Shown piece after piece: positions 2 through 20,765 of a DNA stretch of 55,191 nt. Made by a program: the position numbers and the translations under genes. A model generated the notes under the pieces. That model was given only the letters and a program-made list of their open reading frames with translations. It was not told the DNA's origin and searched no databases. Every line of letters begins with the position of its first letter. Position 1 is the stretch's first letter. Source of the stretch: Acidobacteriota bacterium (GTDB lineage: Bacteria > Acidobacteriota > Holophagae > Acanthopleuribacterales > Acanthopleuribacteraceae); assembly GCA_020439745.1 (NCBI GenBank), contig JAGQSC010000028.1:1-55191 (forward strand), read 5' to 3'.

Positions 2-2062
2 GCGCTGGGTCGCACCACCTCCTGGTCCTACGACCATTTAGGTCGCGCGGTGAAACGCACCCTGCCGCTGGGCATGTTCGAAACGCTTAGTTACGACGGT
101 GTGGGGAACCTGACCGCCATGACCGATTTCAATGGCAACACCACCCAATACGGTTATGACGTCCTGTCACGGCCCATCGTCAAAACCTATGCCGATGCCA
201 GTCAGCAGAAGATGGGTTACAACGCCTTGGGTCTGCGTACCCATGCCCAGACCGCCGATGGCACCACCTTCTATTTCTACGATCTATCCGACCGCCTCAT
301 CCATCAGGAGAACCCCGATGGCACCTGGCTAGTCTATGAATACGACGAGGCGGGCAACCGCACGGCGGTGGAAACGCCCAACGGCCTGACCACCTACAGC
401 TACGACCCGCTCAATCGGCTGGAAGTGGTGACCGCACCCGACGGCACCGCCACCACCTACACCTACGATGCGGTGGGTAACCGGCAACGGGTGCAGATGG
501 GTAACGGCACCGAGACCTTCTACGTGTATGACGACCTGAACCGGCTCACCTACATGGAACACAAGGACGGCGCCGGTACGGTGCTGGCCTCGTTCACCTA
601 CACCCTGGGTCCGGCGGGGAACCGGCTCAGCGTGACCGATCATACCGGTCGCGTGGTGGACTACACCTACGACGAACTGTACCGACTTACCCGCGAGGAT
701 ATTTCGGATCCAACCACAGGTTCCAGCTTCTTCGCCTATACCTACGACGCGGTGGCCAACCGGCTCACCAAGCAAGACGTGAACGGGGTGGTCACGTCCA
801 CTTACGACGATAACGATCGCATCCTCACACGAGGTGGCGACAGTTACAGTTACGACCTGAACGGCAACACCTTGACCGCGTTGGTGGCAGGGGTTACCAC
901 CCACTACGCCTACGACTATGAGAACCGCATGGTGGGCGCCGATGATGGCAGCAAGCTGGTGGCTTACGGCTACAACGCCGATGGCATCCGCAGTTGGAGC
1001 GAGGTGGACGGGCTGCGTACCCATTACCTGGTGGACCAGAACCGGGATTATGCCCAGGTGCTGGAAGAGCTGGATTCGGGCTTCGTGCCCAGTGTCACCT
1101 ATGTGCATGGGGATGACCTGCTGAGCCAGTTCCGCGACGGTACGCGATACAGCTACCACTACGACGGGCACGGCTCCACGATTGCGTTGACCGATCACCT
1201 GGAAACGGTCACCGATACCTACACCTACGACGCCTGGGGCGAACTGTTGGCTTCCACGGGCGCCACCCCCAACAACTACCTCTACACGGGCGAACAGTAC
1301 GACCCCAATGTGGGCTTCTACTACCTCCGAGCCCGCTACTACAACCCCTCACTCGGCCGCTTCCACACCATGGACACCTGGCCGGGCATGCAGTTCGAAC
1401 CCGTCACCCTACACAAGTACCTCTACGCCAACGCGAATCCTGTAATGATGATCGACCCAAGTGGGCGATTCTCGATGGCCGATATCATGGCAGCGAACAC
1501 CATACGCAACATAATTTCTGAGCTTCAAAACGCGCTCCTTCAAGGCTGGGCCATTTTCCAGGAATCAAATGGCGATGGTTATCGAGTATTGAAGAAGGTG
1601 GGGATTGCTGTTGCCACATCGATTGGTGTGGGTGTCGCGCTGAAAATCAGTGGTCGAATCATCGGTAAGATTGCCAAATTGAAGTCGTTTCGAAAACAAC
1701 GGTCCCGTCGAGGTCAACGACTTGGAGGAGATTGTGTGAAGTGTGCGCCAGAAGCGGCCAAGGAATTTGGATTAGACCCAAACAATTTGGCCCCTGATGG
1801 CAAACCTGGATTAATCGCTCCAATACCAGGAACGAAACCGGGGGGGCCACACATGGCTGTTAGACTTCCAAACGGTGATATTTACGACGATACCATCCTG
1901 TGGAACATCCATCAAAAAAACAAAGGTCATATCCCATCTGGATTAAACGATTTGGCTAACTACGATACTTTCTCGCCTGATGTATATGAGAAACTTCTGG
2001 ATATACTCGACGAAGTGAGCAATGCGGTTCGCACCGACCCACCTGTCCGGGCAACAAGATAA
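2..2062 (+). CDS. Rhs-repeat protein, C-terminal part with putative papain-like toxin tip (5' cut by window)
   Basis: The frame is open from base 2, so this is the 3' end of a longer gene; the GTG at 50 is only an internal codon. It encodes many YD repeats (YDxxGN/YTYDAxGN), then the conserved core end (LYTGEQYDP, YYLRARYYNPSLGRFHTMDT) and the DPSG boundary near 1457. The variable tip after DPSG has a hydrophobic stretch (VGIAVATSIGVGVAL), a basic linker, then GGDCVKCAPEAAKEFG and GGPHMAVRLPNGDIYDD. The Cys, His and Asp order suggests a papain-fold (Tox-PL-like) toxin. Rhs proteins deliver C-terminal toxins to neighbouring cells, often through type VI or other export systems; none is visible here. 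Base composition becomes AT-richer after the core, as expected for a swapped tip. Rhs assignment is firm, toxin fold is inference. Confidence 0.9.
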   Translation, partial: ALGRTTSWSYDHLGRAVKRTLPLGMFETLSYDGVGNLTAMTDFNGNTTQYGYDVLSRPIVKTYADASQQKMGYNALGLRTHAQTADGTTFYFYDLSDRLIHQENPDGTWLVYEYDEAGNRTAVETPNGLTTYSYDPLNRLEVVTAPDGTATTYTYDAVGNRQRVQMGNGTETFYVYDDLNRLTYMEHKDGAGTVLASFTYTLGPAGNRLSVTDHTGRVVDYTYDELYRLTREDISDPTTGSSFFAYTYDAVANRLTKQDVNGVVTSTYDDNDRILTRGGDSYSYDLNGNTLTALVAGVTTHYAYDYENRMVGADDGSKLVAYGYNADGIRSWSEVDGLRTHYLVDQNRDYAQVLEELDSGFVPSVTYVHGDDLLSQFRDGTRYSYHYDGHGSTIALTDHLETVTDTYTYDAWGELLASTGATPNNYLYTGEQYDPNVGFYYLRARYYNPSLGRFHTMDTWPGMQFEPVTLHKYLYANANPVMMIDPSGRFSMADIMAANTIRNIISELQNALLQGWAIFQESNGDGYRVLKKVGIAVATSIGVGVALKISGRIIGKIAKLKSFRKQRSRRGQRLGGDCVKCAPEAAKEFGLDPNNLAPDGKPGLIAPIPGTKPGGPHMAVRLPNGDIYDDTILWNIHQKNKGHIPSGLNDLANYDTFSPDVYEKLLDILDEVSNAVRTDPPVRATR

Positions 2063-2080
2063 GCTGATTGAGGTTAAGAA

Positions 2081-2590
2081 ATGAGAATAGCTGTTTGTGG
2101 GACCACGTACTCGGATCCTAGATCATTCGTTGAAGGAGTAGCAAAATTCTTTCAGTCGCCTTCTAAAACAACCCCAATTGGACCAATAGATTACATGATT
2201 GAGACCACAATTAACTTAGATAACCGATCATTGCATTTCAAGGGCGCTGTGCAATCTTTGTTTCACAAAAAAAATTCCTACAAAATCGTGTTATCCGACA
2301 CGAATGCAGTAATTTATTTACTGCCGATTAGCCGAGAGTCCGCGACAATGATACTTGATGACCTAGAAGTGTTTTCTAGCTTGTGCCACGAAATCGGCTA
2401 TAACCATCCAATCAAGTACTTATTTAACGATTATTGGCAAGGGTCGTATCGCGGTCCGGTGTTTGATCTTAATGAAATCGAAGCACTTACTGGTCTTTCA
2501 TCCCTACAACAAACCTCCATTTCCCATGATCCAACGGGGATCGACATTGATGTTATAAGAGGTATAGTCAAACAACTTGGGACCAGTTAA
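2081..2590 (+). CDS. Hypothetical protein, probable immunity protein of the rhs toxin
   Basis: This 169-residue soluble protein has no motif I recognise. It starts 18 bp after the rhs stop, with GAGG upstream of the ATG. It has no signal peptide or membrane segment, and its sequence is AT-rich like the toxin tip and unlike the rhs core. Position directly behind a polymorphic toxin tip is the standard place for the cognate immunity gene, so it probably binds and blocks the upstream toxin in the cytoplasm. Function rests on position only. Confidence 0.6.
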   Translation: MRIAVCGTTYSDPRSFVEGVAKFFQSPSKTTPIGPIDYMIETTINLDNRSLHFKGAVQSLFHKKNSYKIVLSDTNAVIYLLPISRESATMILDDLEVFSSLCHEIGYNHPIKYLFNDYWQGSYRGPVFDLNEIEALTGLSSLQQTSISHDPTGIDIDVIRGIVKQLGTS

Positions 2591-2610
2591 AATCGACGGG
2601 AGATTAGGAG

Positions 2611-2675
2611 GTTAAAACTGGGACACTGAGAGGAGGTTAAAACTGGGACACTGAGGTTAAAACTGGGACACTGAG
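2611..2675. repeat. Three tandem copies of a 20-bp direct repeat
   Basis: The unit gttaaaactgggacactgag begins at 2611, 2636 and 2656. The first step is 25 bp (with an extra ggagg) and the second is 20 bp. It lies just after the immunity gene and before the IS-associated repeats. The GGGACA-type sequence resembles ends of some IS elements, but I cannot assign it. Confidence 0.8.
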
Positions 2676-2723
2676 CGTAAACTTGTTGATATAACTAACT
2701 TTTGAACTCCTGGTTGTACCGTT

Positions 2724-3130
2724 GTACCGTCCGCGTATCCGGGACGTGTGTTCACCTCTCTTTGCGTGCTGTTTGACACAGATTATGCGCGTAGTGAGCT
2801 AAAAGGACCCGATTCGGACGTTGTTTTTATTAAAAAATGGGCGTCGTATCCTCCGTTTGGCGCGTTTTTCAGGGTGTACCGTCCGCGCGTCCGGGACGTG
2901 TTGTTGCCTTTCTTTGCGCGTTGTTTGGTATAGATTGAGCGCTTCATGAGCTAACAGGACGCGATTCGGACGTTGTACCGTCCGCGTGTCCGGGACGTGT
3001 TTTTGCCTATCTTTGCGTGCTGTTTGATACAGATTAAGCGCGTAATGAGCTAATAAGACGCGATTGGGACATTAGTTTTATTGAAAAATGGGCGTCGTGT
3101 CCTCCTTTTGGCGTGTTTTTCAGGTTTTTG
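2724..3130. repeat. Ladder of IS-end-like repeats starting gtaccgtccgcg
   Basis: A block beginning gtaccgtccgcg(t/c)(g/a)tccgggac starts at 2724, 2876 and 2975, with a fourth copy at 7357. The first and third copies carry the whole unit, including a T-rich part (tttttattaaaaaatgggcg) and a ggcg(c/t)gtttttcagg end. The second copy lacks the T-rich part, so the spacings are 152 and 99 bp. The third copy runs into the transposase segment, as does the copy at 7357. The block is therefore probably the 3' (left) end of the IS, duplicated in tandem here. The short open frame at 2748-2933 lies inside it and is not a gene. Confidence 0.75.
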
Positions 3131-3216
3131 GAACGATGAAAGGCACACCACGAGCGGCTGCTTTGCGGACAGGTCTATCCTGATCCATTTTGATGGTTGC
3201 TTGAAGGCGACTCGTT

Positions 3217-4152
3217 TCACGGAGGTGGGATCCAGCCAGTCAACAAACCATCCCAGGCTTGGAAGAAACGCGGACATTTGCGATGGCCGGTTCTTGCTGC
3301 CCAAGCCATAGCTGGTGTAAGGCCAGCCAAACTCTGGTGCGGCCGGGCGTGGTTGTACCAGGTTTTGAACACATCGAGATCCACTTGAACATCATCAGGC
3401 ACGCCGACACTTTGCCACCAGGGATACAGTCGTTCCTTCAAGGTTCTGAAAAGGCGCTTTATCCGACCATTCTGCCAGGGACAGAACGGGTCTATGGTCT
3501 GTTTGCGAATACCCAGGAAAAGGAGCGCGAGTCGCATGCGTCTTGATGTGAAGAGTGTCTCGTTGTCCGTACGCAGGAATCGTGGCCGACCGCAGTGCTC
3601 CATCACATCGAGTAGCACCCGCAACAGACCGGTGGTGGACCGGTCGACCAGGGGCCGGAGGCACAACAAGGCGCGGGTCCCATGATCCATGATGCCGAGC
3701 ACGGGTGTCTCGCAGTGATGCGTGAGAAACGTAAGGTCCATTCCCCACACCAGGTTTCTTTGCCCCTGGACGCGCCTGCGATTCTTGATGTCACGTTGCA
3801 GCTTGAGCACGCGTGACGCGTGCCGTTTGAGTACTTCGGCCACATACGTCTTGCCCACTGTCTCCCCTTTGCGCGTGTTGCGTGCATTAAACGCTGACGC
3901 AATCGTGCGACAGCCTTCATGTGGCATCAGCGCCTTGAGCTTGATCACTTCCTCTTGAACCCAGGGTGGCTTCTTTCGCGATGCACGGCGTTTATCGGAT
4001 TTTGAATGGATGGCGCGACGTCGCAAGCGCGGCCCAAATCCAGACCACGAAAACCATGCGATCACCCCCAGCACGAACGCAAGCATCAATATCAGCAACC
4101 CGCTCCCCCAAATCAAAGAGTGGGACTCTAGCACAGACAACCACCTCGACAT
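3217..4152 (-). CDS. DDE integrase-core transposase (IS3/IS481-like), catalytic Glu replaced by Lys
   Basis: This 311-residue protein has an rve/integrase core. The first Asp is in WGMDLTFLTHH and the second in FLRTDNETLF. Exactly 35 residues after that Asp, where DD35E enzymes carry the catalytic Glu, the sequence reads NGRIKRLFRTLKERL: a Lys (AAG, 3457-3459). The truncated copy at 7599-7866 has Glu (GAG) at the same place, so the change is a point mutation in this copy and strand transfer is probably lost. The C-terminal YNHARPHQSLAGLTP motif is typical of the family. The N-terminus is odd: residues about 13-36 form a strong hydrophobic segment before a basic linker and the helix-turn-helix region. 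The chosen ATG gives the longest frame; a later start would remove the hydrophobic part. Confidence 0.85.
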   Translation of the reverse strand: MSRWLSVLESHSLIWGSGLLILMLAFVLGVIAWFSWSGFGPRLRRRAIHSKSDKRRASRKKPPWVQEEVIKLKALMPHEGCRTIASAFNARNTRKGETVGKTYVAEVLKRHASRVLKLQRDIKNRRRVQGQRNLVWGMDLTFLTHHCETPVLGIMDHGTRALLCLRPLVDRSTTGLLRVLLDVMEHCGRPRFLRTDNETLFTSRRMRLALLFLGIRKQTIDPFCPWQNGRIKRLFRTLKERLYPWWQSVGVPDDVQVDLDVFKTWYNHARPHQSLAGLTPAMAWAARTGHRKCPRFFQAWDGLLTGWIPPP

Positions 4153-4344
4153 CTATTCGACCTGGATGGCTGACCGGGATTGTCAAAGCAGGGCCTTGAA
4201 GATGGAATACTCGATTCTTTTAAATGCCTATGTTCATATGACAGGGCCTACGCACCGGGCCATGACGGGATGGGTCAAGTCACTGAACGATCAATCAGCC
4301 TCCCAAGCCAGTTCAAGCGCACCCAAGGGAACGGGGTCTTGCTT

Positions 4345-4698
4345 TCATATCCTATTCTTCCAGTAGTTAGGTTCTCGATGGACGTGAGCCACTGCAAGGA
4401 TGAAGATTAGGTTCTTTCGAATCACGTAGGGAAGAAAGAACGGAAACACTGGGCAATTTGCACGTCGATATCCGCCCTCACGCAGACGGCAGATCTTAGG
4501 ATTCTCCGCGATTAATTCCGACGTTTGCTTGATCTCAAAAAGCAAACGCCTACCGAGACCGGGCTCCTGTGCTTCATACCATTCCACGGCCGCCTCCATT
4601 TCGGCTTCCGCCTCTTGGATGAATTCAACTATTCTGGTCGAGCCGAGCCTCCCACGCTTGAAATACTTCTGAAGCGGGACGTGAACTTGTAAGTCCAT
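4345..4698 (-). CDS. ParE/RelE-family toxin of a type II toxin-antitoxin pair
   Basis: The sequence has the ParE-like pattern EAEAEMEAAVEWYEAQ, then LGRRLLFEIKQTSELIAENP, a Pro/Arg-rich middle and a C-terminal strand ending near VAHVHREPNYW. Members of this family poison gyrase or cleave mRNA in the cytoplasm. The start is uncertain: the ATG at 4698 gives a 74-bp overlap with the antitoxin gene, the frame stays open up to 4743, and homology begins only near 4620 with no good start codon there. It follows the antitoxin on the same strand. Confidence 0.75.
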   Translation of the reverse strand: MDLQVHVPLQKYFKRGRLGSTRIVEFIQEAEAEMEAAVEWYEAQEPGLGRRLLFEIKQTSELIAENPKICRLREGGYRRANCPVFPFFLPYVIRKNLIFILAVAHVHREPNYWKNRI

Positions 4699-4858
4699 TG
4701 TCAAGCGCGAGAATGCGTTGGCGTATCTCCTGATCCCAGGCACTTTCTACCAATGAGTCCGAGGACTCCCCGGATTTCAAAAGAAGGTGTGCCAGTTCTA
4801 AACGCTCACTAGGTGAAAGTGACTCGGCTTCTCGAACGAGTGCTTCTATTTTGCTCAT
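4625..4858 (-). CDS. Addiction-module antitoxin (TIGR02574/Unstab_antitox type)
   Basis: This 77-residue protein begins MSKIEALVREAESLSPSERL and has the helical LELAHLLLKS pattern and the WDQEIRQRILALDNG segment of the 'putative addiction module component' family, which pairs with ParE/RelE toxins. It lies upstream of and overlaps the toxin gene, the usual antitoxin-first order. It probably neutralises the toxin and represses the pair's own promoter. Confidence 0.8.
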   Translation of the reverse strand: MSKIEALVREAESLSPSERLELAHLLLKSGESSDSLVESAWDQEIRQRILALDNGLTSSRPASEVFQAWEARLDQNS

Positions 4859-4920
4859 GACACCATTCTACTCCCCATATTCCGATTCACAATACCATTC
4901 AAAAAAACTAAACATAGAAT

Positions 4921-5007
4921 GTCACGCCCTTACAGGGCTTGGTTCCCTTTGGTTACCTAACCCAGGGCTCCGCCCTGGGCTGCCATGTTTGGCCCTGCTA
5001 GGGCCAG
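4921..5007 (+). repeat. Palindromic intergenic repeat, copy A
   Basis: This is a unit of about 87 bp made of three palindromes in fixed order: gcccttacagggc, cccagggctccgccctggg and ggccctgctagggcc, joined by conserved spacers (gctgccatgt). Other copies are at 7900-7982 (inverted), 8139-8223 and 8831-8881 (partial). This copy runs directly into truncated rhs sequence at about 5013 and supplies the accidental ATG at 4985 of that frame. Confidence 0.85.
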
Positions 5008-6403
5008 GCCATCATTCACCTACACCCTGGGTCCGGCGGGGAACCGACTCAGCGTGACCGATCACACCGGTCGTGTGGTGGACTACACCTACGACGAACT
5101 GTACCGCCTCACCCGCGAGGATATTTCGGATCCAACCACAGGTTCCAGCTTCTTCGCCTATACCTACGACGCGGTGGCCAACCGGCTCACCAAGCAAGAC
5201 GTGTACGGGGTGGTCACCTCCACCTACGACGATAACGATCGCATCCTCACGCGGGGTGGCGACAGCTACAGTTACGACCTGAACGGCAACACCTTGACCG
5301 CCCTGGTGGCGGGGGTTACCACCCACTACGCCTACGACTATGAGAACCGCATGATGGGTGCCGACGACGGCAGCAAGCTGGTGGCTTACGGCTATAACGC
5401 CGATGGCATACGCGCCTGGAGCGAGGTGGATGGGCTGCGTACCCATTACCTGGTGGACCAGAACCGCGACTACGCCCAGGTGCTGGAAGAGCTGGATGCG
5501 GGCTTCGTGCCCAGCGTCACCTACGTGCATGGCGATGATCTGCTGAGCCAGTTCCGCGACGGTACGCGGTACAGCTACCACTACGACGGGCACGGCTCCA
5601 CGATTGCGTTGACCGATCACCTGGAAACGGTCACCGATACCTACACCTACGACGCCTGGGGCGAACTGTTGGCTTCCACAGGATCCACCCCCAACAACTA
5701 CCTCTACACGGGCGAACAGTACGACCCCAACGTGGGCTTCTACTACCTCCGCGCCCGCTACTACAACCCCTCACTCGGCCGTTTCCACACCATGGACACC
5801 CACCCCGGAATAGAATACGAGCCGCTGACACTACATAAATACTTATATGCTGGCGCGAGTCCAACACTATTCGTAGACCCCAGCGGTATGATTTTTGTTG
5901 CTGGCTTCAGCGAACTACTACTGTCGCTCAACAACGCTTCCTTTTATCGAGGTACCTCTGCTCAAGGTGCCAGGGTTGCTCTGCGGCAAGTTTTGTTCGG
6001 AAGGCCTCCCAAAGACCTGGGATTAGTTGGAGAAGGAGTGCTGGATCTTGCGTTGCAAGGAGTTTTTGACACCATCATTAACAATCCAAACGGATTTGAC
6101 TCGAAATCTAACTTCGGAACAGCAGCACATCATGATTTAGAATTGAAAATAGCATCATTTAAACCGCTTCCAGGTTTTGAGATTGCTGCTGAGGTCTATT
6201 ATGACAAGAATAACAAACCTACCACGAGGAGAGCGAAAGGATCGCTAGGAATCGATGTTCAAATCATACATCGAGGTAAAGTGGTACTTTCACTCGATCT
6301 GAAAACAGGTAAAGGGTGGTCGAAGAACGGTATCTTAGTGAGAAAAAAGAGGTTCGGTTCAGATATCATTCAGATTTTCGTAAAAACCGAGGCATCACGA
6401 TGA
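4985..6403 (+). pseudogene. Orphan, 5'-truncated rhs C-terminal cassette with PD-(D/E)XK nuclease-like toxin
   Basis: From about 5013 to 5801 the DNA repeats 593-1380 of the first rhs gene almost exactly. The translated cores differ at only five residues up to HTMDT. The 5' part is missing: the frame starts at an ATG inside the palindromic repeat, so no secreted Rhs shell would be made. After DPSG (near 5884) the tip is unrelated to that of the first gene. It contains FGTAAHHDLELKIA, then GSLGIDVQIIHRGK and LSLDLKTGKGW, a D...(D/E)xK arrangement typical of restriction-endonuclease-fold nuclease toxins. This is the layout of an orphan rhs-CT module, which can be recombined onto the full-length rhs through the shared core. 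Annotated as a pseudogene because of the lost 5' part; the tip itself is intact. Confidence 0.8.
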
Positions 6404-7305
6404 CGAGTGAAAAAACGAAAAAAGTACTAAAACTTATTGAATCTGTACTAATTCATCATTCAACGAAAAGCCCTGCAAGATATCAAGGAGCTGTTTGTAT
6501 TGAAGAAGGGTGCAAAAGATTCTGCATGTTACCGCAGAGTGTATTTGGCAAACGCATAAAGATAATCGTTTTCGTCGTCGACAGTTGTTTCACAATCGAT
6601 GATTCATCTCTCCAGATTACGAATGGTGGCACCCTGTCGCCGGAGGGACTTGGACATCACTTCGCTTGGGTTATCGACACCTCAGATGAATGGAAGACAT
6701 CGAAGGTGTCAATACAACAATGTATCGAAGAAACAGCTTTGCCTTGGTTTCGCTGCGTCCAAACCCACGATGACTATGAGCACATCTCACAAAACCTGCC
6801 AGATCTCGAACCGATAGACTCGCTAGATAGGGAGTACTCGTTCAAGGGTCAATCGTGGCTGAGGTCCGCATGCAAATCGATAGGCACTTGCTTGCGCCAA
6901 TATTCATTTCAAGAAATTGATTCACCGTACATTCGATATGTGAGGATAAGAGGTGATGTATTCCATGTCATACAATTGAGGCTAATCAACGACGGATCAC
7001 ATTTCCTGACTGATGTTTTTAGCTGGATTCCAGGTATGCACGATCAGGAGACCTCCATTCATGATGACCTTCTCACGATTTGTGGCGGTCGGCTGTCTCA
7101 AGAAGGCGTTTCTCAAACGGGAAAACCCTGGCTGGCGCAGGATTTCGCGATAAAAGACCAAATGATGCAAATCGAAACGGTGTTGGTTACGCAAGCAATT
7201 CCTTGGCTCGATTCCATAAAGAACGTAGATGACGTTCTTGAAAACATTGCAGAACCTTACTTGATCATGATGCCAGGTATTCGACATCGGCTTGGTCTTG
7301 ATTAA
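6400..7305 (+). CDS. Hypothetical protein, probable immunity to the orphan Rhs nuclease tip
   Basis: This 301-residue soluble protein starts at an ATG overlapping the stop of the orphan rhs tip (ATGA at 6400-6403). That start is preferred over the upstream in-frame codon at 6316. The sequence is AT-rich. The two halves look alike: GGTLSPEG followed by a helix and ETALPWF in the first, GGRLSQEG followed by a helix and TQAIPWL in the second. This suggests a tandem duplication of one domain, perhaps DUF4304-like (weak). Position directly after a toxin tip points to immunity function; I have no independent evidence. Confidence 0.65.
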   Translation: MTSEKTKKVLKLIESVLIHHSTKSPARYQGAVCIEEGCKRFCMLPQSVFGKRIKIIVFVVDSCFTIDDSSLQITNGGTLSPEGLGHHFAWVIDTSDEWKTSKVSIQQCIEETALPWFRCVQTHDDYEHISQNLPDLEPIDSLDREYSFKGQSWLRSACKSIGTCLRQYSFQEIDSPYIRYVRIRGDVFHVIQLRLINDGSHFLTDVFSWIPGMHDQETSIHDDLLTICGGRLSQEGVSQTGKPWLAQDFAIKDQMMQIETVLVTQAIPWLDSIKNVDDVLENIAEPYLIMMPGIRHRLGLD

Positions 7306-7356
7306 CACTAAGCAGTTTGATTGCCCGAGGAATTTGGGGGACGAGGTTGTCGAGGT

Positions 7357-7866
7357 GTACCGTCCGCGTGTCCGGGACCTGTTTTTACCTCTCTTTGCGC
7401 GTTGTTTGATACCTATTAAGTGCGTCATGAGCTAACAGGACGCGATTCGGGCGTTGTTTTTATTAAAAAATGGGCGTCGTATCCTCCTTTTGGCGCGTTT
7501 TTCAGGTTTTTGAAACGATGGAAGGCACACTTTGGGCGACTCCCATGCGGACAGGTCGATTCTGATGAATTTTGATTATTGCTTGAAGGCGACTCGTGTC
7601 ACGGAGGTGGGGTCCAGCCTGTCAGTAAGCCATCCCAGGCTTGGAAGAAACGCGGACATTTGCGATGGCCGGTTCTTGCTGCCCAAGCCATGGCAGGAGT
7701 AAGACTCGCCAAGCTCTGGTGCGGCCGGGCGTGGTTGTACCAGGTCTTGAACACATCGAGATCCACTTGAACATCATCAGGCACGCCGACACTTTGCCAC
7801 CAGGGATACAGTCGTTCCTTCAAGGTTCTGAAAAGGCGCTCTATCCGACCGTTCTGCCAGGGACAG
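7357..7866. mobile_element. Truncated second copy of the IS seen at 2975-4152
   Basis: Bases 7357-7866 match 2975-3484 with scattered substitutions. They start with the same gtaccgtccgcg end and stop abruptly inside the transposase gene at gggacag, after which the sequence is unrelated. The inverted palindromic repeat follows about 35 bp later. The 5' two thirds of the transposase gene are gone. Confidence 0.85.
7599..7866 (-). pseudogene. Transposase remnant (C-terminal part only)
   Basis: About 88 C-terminal residues remain, including NGRIERLFRTLKERLYPW with the catalytic Glu intact (codon 7839-7841), and NHARPHQSLASLTP. The frame continues upstream into unrelated sequence to 7994 but this is accidental. 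It is useful as evidence that the ancestral element had Glu where the full-length copy has Lys. Confidence 0.8.
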
Positions 7867-7899
7867 ATTGACCCCCGTTGTCGCATCGCGAACAGGTCA

Positions 7900-7982
7900 A
7901 GGCCCTGGAAGGGCCAGACATGGCAGCCCAGGGCATCGCCCTGGGGAAACGGAAAAAAGAAATCAGTGCCCTGTAAGGGCAC
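7900..7982 (-). repeat. Palindromic intergenic repeat, copy B (inverted)
   Basis: Read on the minus strand this copy shows gtgcccttacagggcac, ccccagggcgatgccctggg, gctgccatgt and ggcccttccagggcc, in the same module order as copy A. It sits beside the break point of the truncated IS. Confidence 0.8.
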
Positions 7983-8138
7983 CACATCAATCAAACACGT
8001 ATCGTTGGTCGAACGGCACGTTATACCGTTTCAGAAACAAGAGAAATTCCTCTTGAAACCCCACTTCCCGATGGTGTTCCTCGTGGTTTGAGTTTTTTCC
8101 GGCTCCCCACCCCATTTCCCACAGAATGATCCCTGATT

Positions 8139-8223
8139 GTCACGCCCTTACAGGGCTTGTTTCCCTTTGATTTCCTAACCCAGGGCTGCGCCCTGGGCTG
8201 CCATGTATGGCCCTGTCATGGCC
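8139..8223 (+). repeat. Palindromic intergenic repeat, copy C
   Basis: It has the same three palindromes as copy A (gcccttacagggc, cccagggctgcgccctggg, ggccctgtcatggcc). Like copy A it runs straight into rhs sequence at the FTYT codons. The 156 bases before it (7983-8138) hold nothing I can identify. Confidence 0.85.
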
Positions 8224-8225
8224 AT

Positions 8226-8343
8226 GGTTTACCTACACTTTTGGGCCCGCGGGGAACCGGCGCGACCGATCACAGCGGTTGCGTGATGCACACCGCCTAC
8301 GACGATCTGGGTCGCCTCACCCGCGACGACATTGGATATCCAA
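8226..8343 (+). pseudogene. Frameshifted scrap of a third rhs core
   Basis: It encodes FTYTFGPAGNR in one frame, then after a small deletion ATDHSG...HTAYDDLGRLTRDDI in another. This matches the first gene's FTYTLGPAGNRLSVTDHTG...LYRLTREDI. It is more diverged than the other two copies, lacks both ends, and cannot be functional. It is directly preceded by palindromic repeat copy C. Confidence 0.75.
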
Positions 8344-8428
8344 CGTTAATTTCAAGGAATGGTGCGTCCGCTGGCAGCAGTCCATGTTACATTGCTCTCG
8401 AAAAATGATTGGAATTAGGAGTTAACCG

Positions 8429-8830: not shown

Positions 8831-8881
8831 CCTAACCCAGGGCGAGTGCCTGGCTGCCATGTACGGCCCTGTCAGGGCCAT
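8831..8881 (+). repeat. Palindromic intergenic repeat, copy D (partial)
   Basis: The first palindrome is missing and the second decayed (cccagggcgagtgcctgg), but gctgccatgt and ggccctgtcagggcc are intact. It lies in the space between doxX and the K+ uptake operon; I see nothing else in 8813-9006. Confidence 0.75.
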
Positions 8882-9006: not shown

Positions 9007-9891
9007 TCACGGGCGCAGGCGAATCATGCGAATCTCGTTCGTCAGCTCGGTGATGTCGAGCTTGCCCTCGTCTGACTTGATCATCTCCACCATGTCGTGA
9101 ACCAGGCCTGCACCCTGCTTGTTGGATGCCAAGACCCGGTCCTTTGAGTCCATCAACCAGACCGGTTGCATTTCCCGATCCAAAAGTGCATTGAGTGCTG
9201 CCCTTTCTTCGCGCACAAGTTGATGGTCCATAGCGCTAGTTTTTCGAATGCGCTGATCCATGAGTTGGTTGAGGGTTCCGCCGATCACGGCAAACTCATA
9301 GGGCACCCGATGGGCTTCGAATCGTTGGAACTTGTCGCCAGACTGATGGGCCCGAGCCAAATCGACCAGTCGGTGTATGGGTCGCAGGAGCCGATAACCC
9401 GTCCGTCGTACCATGAGCAAACTGAAGACCACCGCTAGCATCGCCAGACCCACCATGGCCCAAGCACCGGCGAAGGCCAATCGCTTGGCGTGTGAATCGG
9501 CTTCGTGCATGGTTTTGCGATTGATATCCACCAACTCTCGCAGCGCATTCAACGCCAAATCGATCTGAGCCGGGCTCTGAACGCCTTTCATGTGGAACTC
9601 GCGCAAGAATTCGATGATCGCCTGCTCTTCGGGTTCCGTAATGTTTCGTTCCGCACGATCCAAGGCCTCGCCAAAAGCCGTGTACACTTCCGCAGGCCAG
9701 GCATCGGTATGGTGCCCCGCAAGGATGTGAACCATGTCTTCGGCTGCAACCAGGGAGTAGTCGTTCTCGGCAAGGATCATCTCGATCGCCGGCGCGGTGC
9801 GTTCGACCAACCAGATGGCACTGGTCGCGGTGACAAATTGAAGACCGAGCAACACGAAGATGACGAGCCGAATTTCCGTCCGGATTTGCAT
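9007..9891 (-). CDS. HAMP-type membrane sensor protein without kinase domain, linked to trkA/trkH
   Basis: This 294-residue protein has an N-terminal membrane segment (residues about 9-27), a helical periplasmic region of about 120 residues, and a second membrane segment (about 143-162, AGAWAMVGLAMLAVVFSLLMV). A HAMP-like stretch follows (RRTGYRLLRPIHRLVDLARA), then a coiled region and a short PAS-like tail (REMQPVWLMDSKDRVLASN). It stops where a histidine kinase or cyclase domain would begin. AAGGAG precedes the ATG, two bases after the trkA stop, so it is translated with the K+ transporter genes. It may sense turgor or redox state for them, which is inference. Confidence 0.7.
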   Translation of the reverse strand: MQIRTEIRLVIFVLLGLQFVTATSAIWLVERTAPAIEMILAENDYSLVAAEDMVHILAGHHTDAWPAEVYTAFGEALDRAERNITEPEEQAIIEFLREFHMKGVQSPAQIDLALNALRELVDINRKTMHEADSHAKRLAFAGAWAMVGLAMLAVVFSLLMVRRTGYRLLRPIHRLVDLARAHQSGDKFQRFEAHRVPYEFAVIGGTLNQLMDQRIRKTSAMDHQLVREERAALNALLDREMQPVWLMDSKDRVLASNKQGAGLVHDMVEMIKSDEGKLDITELTNEIRMIRLRP

Positions 9892-9893
9892 GT

Positions 9894-10559
9894 CTATTGC
9901 TCCTTGAGTAACGCACGTGTGGATCCAGGACGACCCACCACCAGAAGCGATTCCTGCTCATTCAGGGGCCGTTCGGGACCAGGAAGGGCGATATGCTCCA
10001 CACCTTCCTCCACGGTCTTGATACCCAGCACCATGATTCCGTACTGCTTGGGCAGTTTCAGTTCGGCCAGGGTGCGATTGGCCATGAATGGCAGCACCTT
10101 CATCTCGGTGATCACCAGGTTCTCGCTGAGGGGAATTTCTTCCAGCAGGCCTTGGTGTGCCAGTCTCTTGGCATAACGCTCTCCAAACTCCTGCTCAGGG
10201 TTCACGACCTCGTGGGCACCCACCAGTTGAAGAATACGTTCCAGCAGGCGGTCGGTAGCTCTGGCGACAATGAAGGGGCAGCCGAGCTGACGTAACAGCG
10301 CCGTGACGATTATGGACCCCTCCCGCGACTCATTGCCAATGGCACTTATGGCCATGTCACGGGCGCCGGGGTTCAGGGCTGCCAACGTTTGCTCATCGGT
10401 CGCATCGGCACAGATGGCTCGGACGGCATAGGAACTGGCTTCCTGAACAAGTTCCTGACGTCGGTCTACCACGATCACTTCCACGCCTTCTGAGGTCAAA
10501 GAACGTGCGACCGCCGAACCGAACTGTCCCAACCCAATCACAATGGCTTGTTTTTTCAT
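9894..10559 (-). CDS. Trk/Ktr potassium uptake regulatory subunit (TrkA/KtrA)
   Basis: This 221-residue cytoplasmic protein has an N-terminal RCK/TrkA-N Rossmann domain (VIGLGQFGSAVARSL, then VIVVDRR at the end of the second strand, which favours NAD/ATP binding) and a C-terminal TrkA-C domain from about residue 135. It forms a ring under the membrane channel and gates K+ flux by nucleotide binding. The start at 10559 has GGGAG upstream; the longer frame to 10616 runs back over the trkH 3' end. It is 13 bp behind trkH and 2 bp before the membrane sensor gene. Confidence 0.92.
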   Translation of the reverse strand: MKKQAIVIGLGQFGSAVARSLTSEGVEVIVVDRRQELVQEASSYAVRAICADATDEQTLAALNPGARDMAISAIGNESREGSIIVTALLRQLGCPFIVARATDRLLERILQLVGAHEVVNPEQEFGERYAKRLAHQGLLEEIPLSENLVITEMKVLPFMANRTLAELKLPKQYGIMVLGIKTVEEGVEHIALPGPERPLNEQESLLVVGRPGSTRALLKEQ

Positions 10560-10572
10560 TGCAGACTCCCTA

Positions 10573-12642
10573 TTAACCCACGTCCAGATCTGTTTCGGGC
10601 AGGACCATAGGCGCATGCCCCCTAGATTTACTTGGCAGCACCAATAAAAGTGTCAAAGGCCCGACCCGCCCTGCAAACATGGCTGTCATGATAATGATCT
10701 TGCCGATTTCATCCAAGCGAGCAGTTCCACCCAATGACAGTCCCACGGTACCCAATGCTGAAACCGTTTCAAAGAAGCCTACCTCCATGGACATATCTTG
10801 TGTGAGCAAGATACCCACAAAGAAGAACGCGACGGCAACCAGACCAAGCACGGTAACGGTGGCCGCGCGAAACACGGTCGCGGATCGGATTTGGTACCCG
10901 TAAAAACTGATGTGGTCCCGACCCTGGAAAGCAGCACGAATCAGTAAAATCAGAACCGCAATGGTCGTGGTCTTGATGCCCCCAGCCGTAGAAGCAGGAC
11001 TACCCCCAATGAACATGAGTGGCAGCATCAAGACGTAGGTTGCTGGCGCTACAGTCGTTAAATCCACTGAGTTGAATCCCGCCGTCCGCAGGGTCGCCGA
11101 CTGAAAGAAGGCATTGGCCACACGATCGCCAAATCCCATCCCCGCCAAGGAGTTACGTGTTTCGAACACCGAAAAACCTACGAACCCTATGGCCAGCAAG
11201 ATACCTGCGGTCACGAGAATGAGTTTGGATTGTGCGGCTAGTCGCTCACCCAGGGGAAGCCGTATCAGATTCAAAATGACCAAGGGGCCCAGCCCGCCAA
11301 GGATGATCAAACAAGCTACCGTACTTAACAAAACAGGATCGCCGTTGTAGGGAACCAAGCTATCGCTCTGAAGGGCAAAACCGGCGTTGCAGAACGCTGA
11401 AATCGACGTAAAGGTGGCACGCCAAATGGCTTGGCCCCAGGCATCACCATGAGCGCGAAACAAGAACGTCAACAGCAAGGCTCCGGAACTCTCACAGACT
11501 ATGGTAACCGTAAACACGTTGCGAATAATGCTGCGTATGGCGCTGTGACTGGATGTGTTCAACAACGAGGCCGCAGTTAACTCATAGCGCATGCTCAACC
11601 GCCGTCCCAGAATCAAGAGCGCAGCCGTTGAAAACGTCATGATCCCCAAGCCACCCAGTTGGATGAGCAGCAAGATTACGGCTTCCCCAAATGACGTGAA
11701 CGCCACTGGCGTATCCAAAACGGCTAGACCGGTCACGCAAATGGCGCTAATTGATGTGAAAAGGCCATCCAACAAATGGTGGGCCGATCCCGTGTCTGAG
11801 GCGATGGGCAAGGACAAGACGACGCCGCCCACCACACCTCCCAACAAGAAGGTTACCACCAGTGCCTTGGCGGGATCCTCAAAGATGACGAGCATCCAAT
11901 TGTCATCTTCCATCTGTTCATGGACGGGTAGACCATAGCGAATGTGCCGCGACCACCACAAAATCACGAGCATTGCAGGAACGATCAGCAAAGTTGGTTG
12001 TGCCCTACTGATCAGAGGCAAAAGGCACAGCAGCCAAAGCATGGCCTTGAGAAAAAGGTGCCTCTTGATGTCCTGTCGCCAGAGCGACCAAGCCACACTG
12101 AGCGCGGCACCTGTCAAGGCATATCGAGCCGGCCAGCCAGAAGCATCTTCAACGAGACACAGCACCCAAAGTGCGACAAGACCCCAAGCGCTGGCCGTCA
12201 CATGCGGTGGCGGTGTGGGATTGGCCTCATTGAGATGACGCACGTTGAACCAGCCCCACAACGAACAGAGGTACAGTGAAACAGCTGTTAACGTGAACAT
12301 GCAGATCAGTGGTTTATGTAGCTGGAACGACAGATACAGGCAGGTTTCGGCAAGTATCAAGAATGTGGTGAGGGGTCGATGGCTGGGCCGTAAGTTGCGT
12401 CGGTTCCCCACAATAGCCACTGTGATCACCGCTAATCCCGACAATAGCCAAACGGCTACGACTTGGCTTGGACGCACAGGAGCCAACGCACGCAGCATGG
12501 CGGGTGCCGCATCCAGGACAAAGAGCCAAGACAAAGCTTGGCTCAACCCTATCAACACCGATGGGACTTGAGCCGTCTCGCTTTTCTCTGATGATCGAAC
12601 TTGTTGGGCACTCAACTCGGTATGGCTCCCGCTGCAACGCAA
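10573..12642 (-). CDS. Trk/Ktr potassium transporter membrane subunit with N-terminal extension
   Basis: The C-terminal ~440 residues are a TrkH/KtrB channel with four recognisable filter loops: SAICVTGLA, SAFCNAGFA, TLRTAGFN and ALGTVGLS. At 689 residues it is about 200 longer than usual. The extra N-terminal part holds several hydrophobic segments, an architecture seen in some TrkH-like proteins. It imports K+ with the TrkA subunit encoded next. The start is uncertain: the frame opens with a TTG at 12642 without a clear ribosome site; a TTG at 12615 lies ten bases after CGGGAG. Confidence 0.9.
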   Translation of the reverse strand: MRCSGSHTELSAQQVRSSEKSETAQVPSVLIGLSQALSWLFVLDAAPAMLRALAPVRPSQVVAVWLLSGLAVITVAIVGNRRNLRPSHRPLTTFLILAETCLYLSFQLHKPLICMFTLTAVSLYLCSLWGWFNVRHLNEANPTPPPHVTASAWGLVALWVLCLVEDASGWPARYALTGAALSVAWSLWRQDIKRHLFLKAMLWLLCLLPLISRAQPTLLIVPAMLVILWWSRHIRYGLPVHEQMEDDNWMLVIFEDPAKALVVTFLLGGVVGGVVLSLPIASDTGSAHHLLDGLFTSISAICVTGLAVLDTPVAFTSFGEAVILLLIQLGGLGIMTFSTAALLILGRRLSMRYELTAASLLNTSSHSAIRSIIRNVFTVTIVCESSGALLLTFLFRAHGDAWGQAIWRATFTSISAFCNAGFALQSDSLVPYNGDPVLLSTVACLIILGGLGPLVILNLIRLPLGERLAAQSKLILVTAGILLAIGFVGFSVFETRNSLAGMGFGDRVANAFFQSATLRTAGFNSVDLTTVAPATYVLMLPLMFIGGSPASTAGGIKTTTIAVLILLIRAAFQGRDHISFYGYQIRSATVFRAATVTVLGLVAVAFFFVGILLTQDMSMEVGFFETVSALGTVGLSLGGTARLDEIGKIIIMTAMFAGRVGPLTLLLVLPSKSRGHAPMVLPETDLDVG

Positions 12643-19632: not shown

Positions 19633-20765
19633 GCCACTTCCTCGTAGAGTAACTTCACCCATTCCCTATCCAGTGGCCTGGGATTGAACGTACCCGTCCA
19701 TTGCGTCATCGCGTCGTCCACCAACTCTGACCAGTCACCAACTTGAGCCACCTGAGCGATTCGTTCAGGCAAACCCAGTCGTGCCTTGATGGATTGCACA
19801 TAAGCTGCCAGTGCATGGCCCGGTTTCGGACCACTCAGGCAGGCATCTTGAGCCAATCGTGCGTAGCGATGAGCCATCAACTCATTATTCCCACGCAGCA
19901 CGGCCGGCAACATCAGCGAAACAGCTACCCCATGGGTGATCCCATATCGGGCCGTGAGTGGATTGGCACACGCGTGCGCGGCACCCAGCATGGAGGCTTC
20001 GATGGCACATCCAGCAAAGTGGGCGCCGAGCAACATATCGCCCCAGGCGCTGTTGTCTGCTTTCCCATCAGCAATCTCATCCACACCCGAATGCAAGAGG
20101 CGCCAAGCGTGACTGGCATACATACGCGAGAGTGGGTTCGCCCTGGTGGAAACATAACTTTCAAGGGCATGAGCCATGGCGTCCAGACTGGAGGCGGCGA
20201 TCACGGCACGAGGCGCTGAGGCAGGCAGGTCGGCATCAAGAATTACGGTTCTGAACCGCGCCTGAATGTCGCCACACGCCATTTTTTTATGGTCGGCGGC
20301 ACGCGAAATCAGCGCGTAGGACTGGCCATCACTGCCCGTGCCAGCTGTCGTGGGGATACCAATACTCGGAATCATGGGTTTGGTTGCCTTGCCGAAACCC
20401 CAATAATCCTCCATGGCACCACCGTTGCTCAATAAGAAGTTGATCCCTTTGGCGCAGTCCATGGCAGACCCGCCACCCAACGCCACCAACAAATCGGGTT
20501 GAAACCGACTTACGGCCTGTACACCGCGTGCCACATCGTCCGTGGTTGGGTTCTCATGCACATCGGTAAACACCAGCACGTCGAGACCTGCGTTGATCAA
20601 TGCTCGGCGCGCCTGGTCCACATATCCTATTTCTTCAATGCCCGGGTCCGAGATCAAGGCCACACGCGTCCCGCATAGGTCCAATGCAAGTTGGCCCACG
20701 CGATCGAGGCTGCCTGCCCCAAACACAAGCCGTATGGTCTGTTGAACGTCAAAGGGTTCGGTCAA
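19629..20765 (-). CDS. Iron-containing alcohol dehydrogenase
   Basis: This 378-residue protein has the Fe-ADH nucleotide-binding motif ALGGGSAMDCAKG (about residues 96-107), the GIPTTAGTGSDGQ motif, and the metal-binding Asp/His region DAMAHALESYVS and GAAHACANPLTARYGITHG. It interconverts an aldehyde and an alcohol with NAD(P)H. Directly behind the aldehyde dehydrogenase/acyl reductase gene (4-bp overlap), it could reduce the aldehyde to an alcohol. Confidence 0.92.
   Translation of the reverse strand: MTEPFDVQQTIRLVFGAGSLDRVGQLALDLCGTRVALISDPGIEEIGYVDQARRALINAGLDVLVFTDVHENPTTDDVARGVQAVSRFQPDLLVALGGGSAMDCAKGINFLLSNGGAMEDYWGFGKATKPMIPSIGIPTTAGTGSDGQSYALISRAADHKKMACGDIQARFRTVILDADLPASAPRAVIAASSLDAMAHALESYVSTRANPLSRMYASHAWRLLHSGVDEIADGKADNSAWGDMLLGAHFAGCAIEASMLGAAHACANPLTARYGITHGVAVSLMLPAVLRGNNELMAHRYARLAQDACLSGPKPGHALAAYVQSIKARLGLPERIAQVAQVGDWSELVDDAMTQWTGTFNPRPLDREWVKLLYEEVA

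What the first reader, a model, noticed from the sequence alone, without database searches (positions are those of the whole stretch)
4921..8343. Palindromic repeat abuts rhs sequence at the same codon twice
Copy A (4921-5007) and copy C (8139-8223) each run within a few bases into the rhs codons for FTYT(L/F)GPAGNR. The two rhs scraps are of clearly different ages: one is almost identical to the main gene, the other diverged and frameshifted. Either the repeat targets this site, or it marks the edge of a mobile rhs cassette.
Basis: seen in the sequence. Interest (0 to 1): 0.62.

Follow-up and report, generated by a model that had tools for sequence, protein, structure and literature searches.

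The report
REP-like element carrying an rhs scrap
A palindromic repeat left behind by a small transposase-linked element became fused once to a piece of an rhs toxin gene, and that fused end was then copied to several places in the genome, so the repeated 'same codon' junction is most likely inherited and not targeted.

Summary
The palindrome (A 4920-5006, C 8138-8224) is the right end (R) of a REP-like unit linked to a Y1 (IS200-type, RAYT-like) transposase: L palindrome (7901-7987), C-terminal scrap of the transposase gene (7990-8082, - strand), R palindrome. A relative (G004) has the same layout around an intact transposase.

In this genome, five R copies on three contigs run, about 3 nt later (A has 5 extra bases), into the rhs codons FTYT: A, C, two on C24 and one on C27. 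Permutation p was <=1.5e-4 for each. Six other R copies (C26 x2, C6, three in a congener) have no rhs there. Copy D is inconclusive.

The five form one clade of R sequences. None has rhs upstream. Outside the window the rhs tail is only about 26-40 bp. Intact rhs genes are uninterrupted at FTYT, and orphan rhs pieces in relatives break elsewhere. The best account is one R-rhs fusion, possibly at a shared GGCC, then spread of the fused end.

The 'different ages' claim is weak: scrap A has dS 0.17-0.24 from other rhs copies and is under purifying selection. Scrap A is an orphan rhs-CT module; scrap C is dead. Modest interest.

The parts
4920..5006 (+). Copy A: R-type palindromic repeat (hairpin-forming), right end of the REP-like unit
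   Evidence: Repeat family; single-strand DNA fold z -4.0
5007..5014 (+). Junction A: GGCCATCA between repeat and rhs; the TCA matches the codon before TTC in the C36 rhs gene, and GGCC is shared by repeat end and rhs
5012..6403 (+). Orphan rhs-CT module A: 816 bp of rhs core (93.5% identical to the upstream copy), then a different C-terminal tip from about 5828; the ORF reads in frame from an ATG at 4985 inside the repeat
6400..7305 (+). Candidate immunity gene of module A (ATG overlaps the tip's stop codon; no Pfam match). Assignment by position only
7901..7987 (-). Copy B: L-type palindromic repeat, left end of the unit
7990..8082 (-). C-terminal scrap of a Y1 (IS200-type) transposase gene: EEHHREVGFQEEFLLFLKRYNVPFDQRYVFD
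   Evidence: 55% identical to the C-terminus of an intact Y1_Tnp protein in G004, 48% to that of C17 in this genome
8138..8224 (+). Copy C: R-type palindromic repeat, right end of the unit
8227..8344 (+). rhs scrap C: about 118 bp, 5-bp deletion (frameshift), pseudogene
8831..8881 (+). Copy D: partial R-type repeat; its outer flank is not significantly rhs-like (p = 0.13)
2..2062 (+). Probably itself a 5'-truncated copy; the full-length gene (4738 aa) is on C36

Best explanation
The repeat is the right-end palindrome (R) of a REP-like unit mobilised in the past by a Y1 HUH (IS200/RAYT-type) transposase. In the window most of the transposase gene is gone, leaving L palindrome, gene scrap, R palindrome. 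Once, an R end was joined to an rhs gene just before the FTYT codons, plausibly by illegitimate joining at a shared GGCC (R ends GGGCC, rhs reads CTGGCC-TCR-TTC). Descendants of that fused end were copied to other sites (C24 twice, C27), carrying about 26-40 bp of rhs as a passenger. At the rhs locus the R end borders an orphan rhs-CT module (A) and a dead scrap (C). Shown: the unit architecture, the five junctions, lack of upstream rhs, shared subfamily, intact rhs elsewhere. Inferred: the transposase's role in copying, the microhomology origin, and which copy came first.
For: Five R copies on three contigs abut FTYT; flank p <= 1.5e-4 each; six other R copies do not. The five group together in the R tree, support 0.79. 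The C24 units at 20378 and 23753 are homologous from the first bases of L to 26 bp into the rhs tail and not outside, so the tail was duplicated with the unit. None of the five upstream flanks contains the rhs sequence that precedes FTYT. The spacing between repeat and TTC is about 3 nt in C, C24a, C24b and C27; A has 5 extra bases. Intact rhs copies on C36 and in the window are uninterrupted, and orphan rhs pieces in relatives start about 107 and 155 residues before FTYT or 89 after it. An intact Y1 transposase flanked by the same type of palindromes occurs in G004. In the congener G001, two L-scrap-R units share a different outer flank, part of another dispersed repeat, so co-copying of R with its neighbour has a possible parallel.
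Against: R(A) and R(C) differ at 8 of 87 sites, but their rhs tails differ by about 22%. A single fusion therefore needs slower change in the repeat, or overwriting of A's rhs by recombination with intact copies; similarity of A, the upstream copy and C36 is patchy by window, which allows but does not prove this. The rhs tails end at different points (26, about 32 and 36-40 bp). The R tree rests on about 87 columns. Only three places lie outside the window's locus, and C24's two copies are one lineage. The clade alone would also fit one active, targeting subfamily.
Confidence: 0.68

Rival explanations
1. Decayed rhs cassettes: R-rhs-CT-immunity modules were once inserted whole at C24 and C27, with R as cassette edge, and later lost everything but the first 26-40 bp of rhs.
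For: A is a whole module with R at its edge; C looks like an intermediate stage with 118 bp left. A weak rhs C-terminal similarity lies between L and R at C24:20458-20600 (p = 0.003).
Against: No other convincing rhs remnant lies downstream of R in C24 or C27. The C24 and C27 tails stop within about 14 bp of one another, unlikely for independent deletions of long modules. The homologous C24 spacer shows no rhs similarity.
Confidence: 0.17
2. Site-specific targeting: the Y1 transposase inserted its palindromic unit repeatedly at the FTYT codons of rhs genes.
For: Nearly constant spacing between R and TTC in five copies; IS200/IS605-type elements choose cleavage sites by pairing with guide sequences (PMC8266576).
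Against: No upstream rhs in any copy; rhs genes with FTYT uninterrupted; no rhs at six other R copies; tails of only 26-40 bp outside any rhs gene.
Confidence: 0.07
3. Two or more independent chance fusions, or recombination between repeats, without a common fused ancestor.
For: Tail lengths and divergences differ among copies.
Against: Same codon and almost the same spacing in all five, and a shared R subfamily. Three of the five lie on contigs (C24, C27) with no other rhs match in the genome search.
Confidence: 0.05

Closest known systems
REPtrons / TnpA-Y1 class 3 elements (Planctomycetes, Acidobacteria, Proteobacteria; PMC6006769)
   Same: Small Y1 transposase gene flanked on both sides by palindromic structures, copies of which are dispersed in the genome
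   Different: In this genome the cognate gene is only a C-terminal scrap; the CnGA foot was not established; copy number is low; one subfamily carries an rhs tail
REPINs / BIMEs (paired inverted REPs mobilised by RAYTs; PMC3116915, title and abstract only)
   Same: Inverted palindrome pairs without a transposase gene, presumed non-autonomous
   Different: Longer repeats (about 87 bp, several hairpins), L and R ends distinct, low copy number, no GTAG tag demonstrated
Orphan rhs-CT/immunity modules (Salmonella rhs; PMC3967940)
   Same: Displaced rhs 3' fragments with a new tip and a downstream gene; 816 bp at 93.5% identity to another copy compares with 522 bp at 95% in Salmonella
   Different: Module A is bordered upstream by the palindromic repeat, which supplies an in-frame ATG; no expression or recombination was tested

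Membership tests
REP-like unit of a Y1 (IS200/RAYT-type) transposase, class 3-like | Y1_Tnp (PF01797) transposase gene between the palindromes | tested here: met
   Intact 151-aa Y1_Tnp protein (E 1.1e-24) between such palindromes in G004; only a 31-aa C-terminal scrap in the window
REP-like unit of a Y1 (IS200/RAYT-type) transposase, class 3-like | Palindromes able to form hairpins, in inverted arrangement on either side | tested here: met
   Folds z -3.1 to -5.6; inverted pairs at C9, C24, C26, C6
REP-like unit of a Y1 (IS200/RAYT-type) transposase, class 3-like | CnGA tetranucleotide foot at the hairpin (PMC6006769) | tested here: inconclusive
   CTGA precedes the main hairpin in only some copies (C26b, G001 C19); others read CTAA, CTTA, TTTA (by eye)
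REP-like unit of a Y1 (IS200/RAYT-type) transposase, class 3-like | Transposase acts on these palindromes | not testable with these tools
   Needs a cleavage assay; no full-length cognate gene was seen in G000
Orphan rhs-CT/immunity module | Displaced rhs 3' end homologous to a longer rhs gene, with a different tip | tested here: met
   816 bp at 93.5% identity then divergent tip
Orphan rhs-CT/immunity module | Cognate immunity gene directly downstream | tested here: inconclusive
   An ORF (6400-7305) overlaps the tip's stop codon, but has no family match
Integron cassette array (attC sites) | attC ends RYYYAAC/GTTRRRY and an integrase | not tested
   Considered by eye only; no GTTRRRY seen at the R ends

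The most novel reading that the evidence does not exclude
The rhs-tailed R ends are working borders that let a Y1 transposase mobilise or reshuffle rhs toxin modules, with the FTYT segment acting as homology for reinsertion into rhs genes.
Probability: 0.06. Interest if true: 0.65.

Novelty: new member of a known kind. Interest (0 to 1): 0.3.

Why it matters
It shows how a REP-like element's end can pick up a fragment of a neighbouring gene and spread it, producing repeated 'same codon' junctions that look like targeting. It is also a worked caution: enrichment at one site is not evidence for targeting until subfamily structure and both flanks are checked. For rhs biology it adds a multi-module rhs locus in this family with an orphan module under purifying selection.

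Tried and rejected
Pattern scan of 84,980 species for repeat-FTYT junctions gave 5 hits, none in rhs sequence on inspection; treated as chance. Copy D as a sixth junction: not significant (p = 0.13). An rhs C-terminal remnant inside the C24 spacer: p = 0.003 in one copy, nothing in its homologue; set aside. Origin of the roughly 20-40 bp flank shared outside the L ends on C24: found only on C24. rhs and REP co-mention in papers: three hits, not relevant by title and abstract. Two Pfam calls failed on wrong coordinates. Integron attC idea dropped on inspection.

Full report
The observation. Copy A (4920-5006) and copy C (8138-8224) are 87-base repeats with 8 differences. Each is followed within 3-8 bases by rhs codons for FTYT(L/F)GPAGNR. 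A search of the organism's own genome (5.1 Mb, 65 contigs) with the repeat gave 18 matches on five contigs. With the repeat plus rhs, five matches run across the junction: window A and C, C24:20600, C24:23976 and C27:329102. In a permutation test on the outer 60 bases, these five have p of 1.0e-4 to 1.5e-4 (floor 5e-5); copies on C26 (two), C6 and in the congener G001 (three) have p of 0.37-1; copy D has p = 0.13.

What the repeat is. Copies come in two forms, L and R, in inverted pairs. Between L (7901-7987) and R (8138-8224) the minus strand encodes 31 residues that match the C-terminus of an intact Y1_Tnp (PF01797) protein in G004 at 55% and of the C17 protein of this genome at 48%. In G004 the intact gene lies between palindromes of the same form. 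Units in G001 also keep a transposase scrap beside R. L and R fold as single strands better than shuffled sequence, z -3.1 to -5.6. The closest described group is TnpA-Y1 class 3, known mainly from Planctomycetes, Acidobacteria and Proteobacteria and flanked by atypical dispersed structures (PMC6006769). Its CnGA foot was not established here. C17 appears to carry its own, different palindromes (by inspection). No full-length cognate transposase was found in this genome, so the family is probably no longer active here; that is inference.

Why the junctions look inherited. First, the five rhs-bearing R copies form one group in a tree of R sequences, support 0.79 on about 87 columns. Second, the spacing between the R end and TTC is about 3 nt in four of them, with 5 extra bases in A; R ends GGGCC and intact rhs reads CTGGCC before the TCR codon, so joining at GGCC is plausible. 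Third, no upstream flank contains the rhs sequence that precedes FTYT, as an insertion into rhs would leave. Fourth, the two C24 units align from the first bases of L to 26 bp into the rhs tail and no further. Fifth, the rhs tails at C24 and C27 are only about 26-40 bp. Sixth, rhs genes here and in relatives run through FTYT, and orphan pieces in relatives begin elsewhere. In G001, two L-scrap-R units share a different outer neighbour, part of another dispersed repeat that also occurs alone; this resembles copying of R with its neighbour, though insertion beside R is also possible there.

The rhs side. C36 carries a 4738-aa rhs gene with FTYT intact; further along is a 5'-truncated rhs ORF that runs off the contig end, and the window begins in rhs sequence of the same kind. 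Scrap A keeps 816 bp of core at 93.5-94.4% identity to the other two copies and then a different tip, the pattern of orphan rhs-CT modules (PMC3967940). It has dS 0.24 and 0.17 and dN/dS of about 0.09-0.15 to the other copies, so it is constrained, not recent. Scrap C is about 118 bp with a 5-bp deletion.

Limits. The tree is short, the genome is a draft with copies near contig ends, only one congener is held, and the metagenome collection could not be scanned. R(A)-R(C) divergence is lower than that of their rhs tails; recombination of A with intact rhs would explain it, but was not shown.

Noticed in passing
C36 (L039) 1439-4223, - strand: UvrD-like helicase gene and an OLD-type ATPase/TOPRIM gene, overlapping, between rhs modules; resembles a Gabija-like defence pair (Pfam only; PADLOC not run).
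   Followed up: partly
window 4345-4858; L037 about 9690-10200; L066 5730-6304: ParE-type toxin and Unstab_antitox-type antitoxin genes lie close to R copies in three places; Pfam was run only on the window pair, the others are by eye.
   Followed up: partly
L035 7467-8437: A Gp49/HigB-like and HTH gene pair sits between two L-type repeats in the same orientation.
   Followed up: partly
window 2709-3124 and 7342-7506; L037 about 11440: A repeat of about 116-162 bp (GTACCGTCCGCGTGTCCGGGACGTG) accompanies the integrase-core transposase genes, possibly their element end.
   Followed up: no
window 4985: An ATG inside repeat A is in frame with the orphan rhs module, giving a 472-aa ORF.
   Followed up: no
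L035 about 10780-10870 and L037 about 9460-9530: A second palindromic repeat family (TACCCTGGGTTCCTCG...) near two of the rhs-tailed R copies.
   Followed up: no
L066 6353-6690, 7594-7835, 7850-8047, 8767-9009: A dispersed repeat of about 240 bp in G001 whose left end lies about 10 bp outside an R copy in one place and without R in others.
   Followed up: partly
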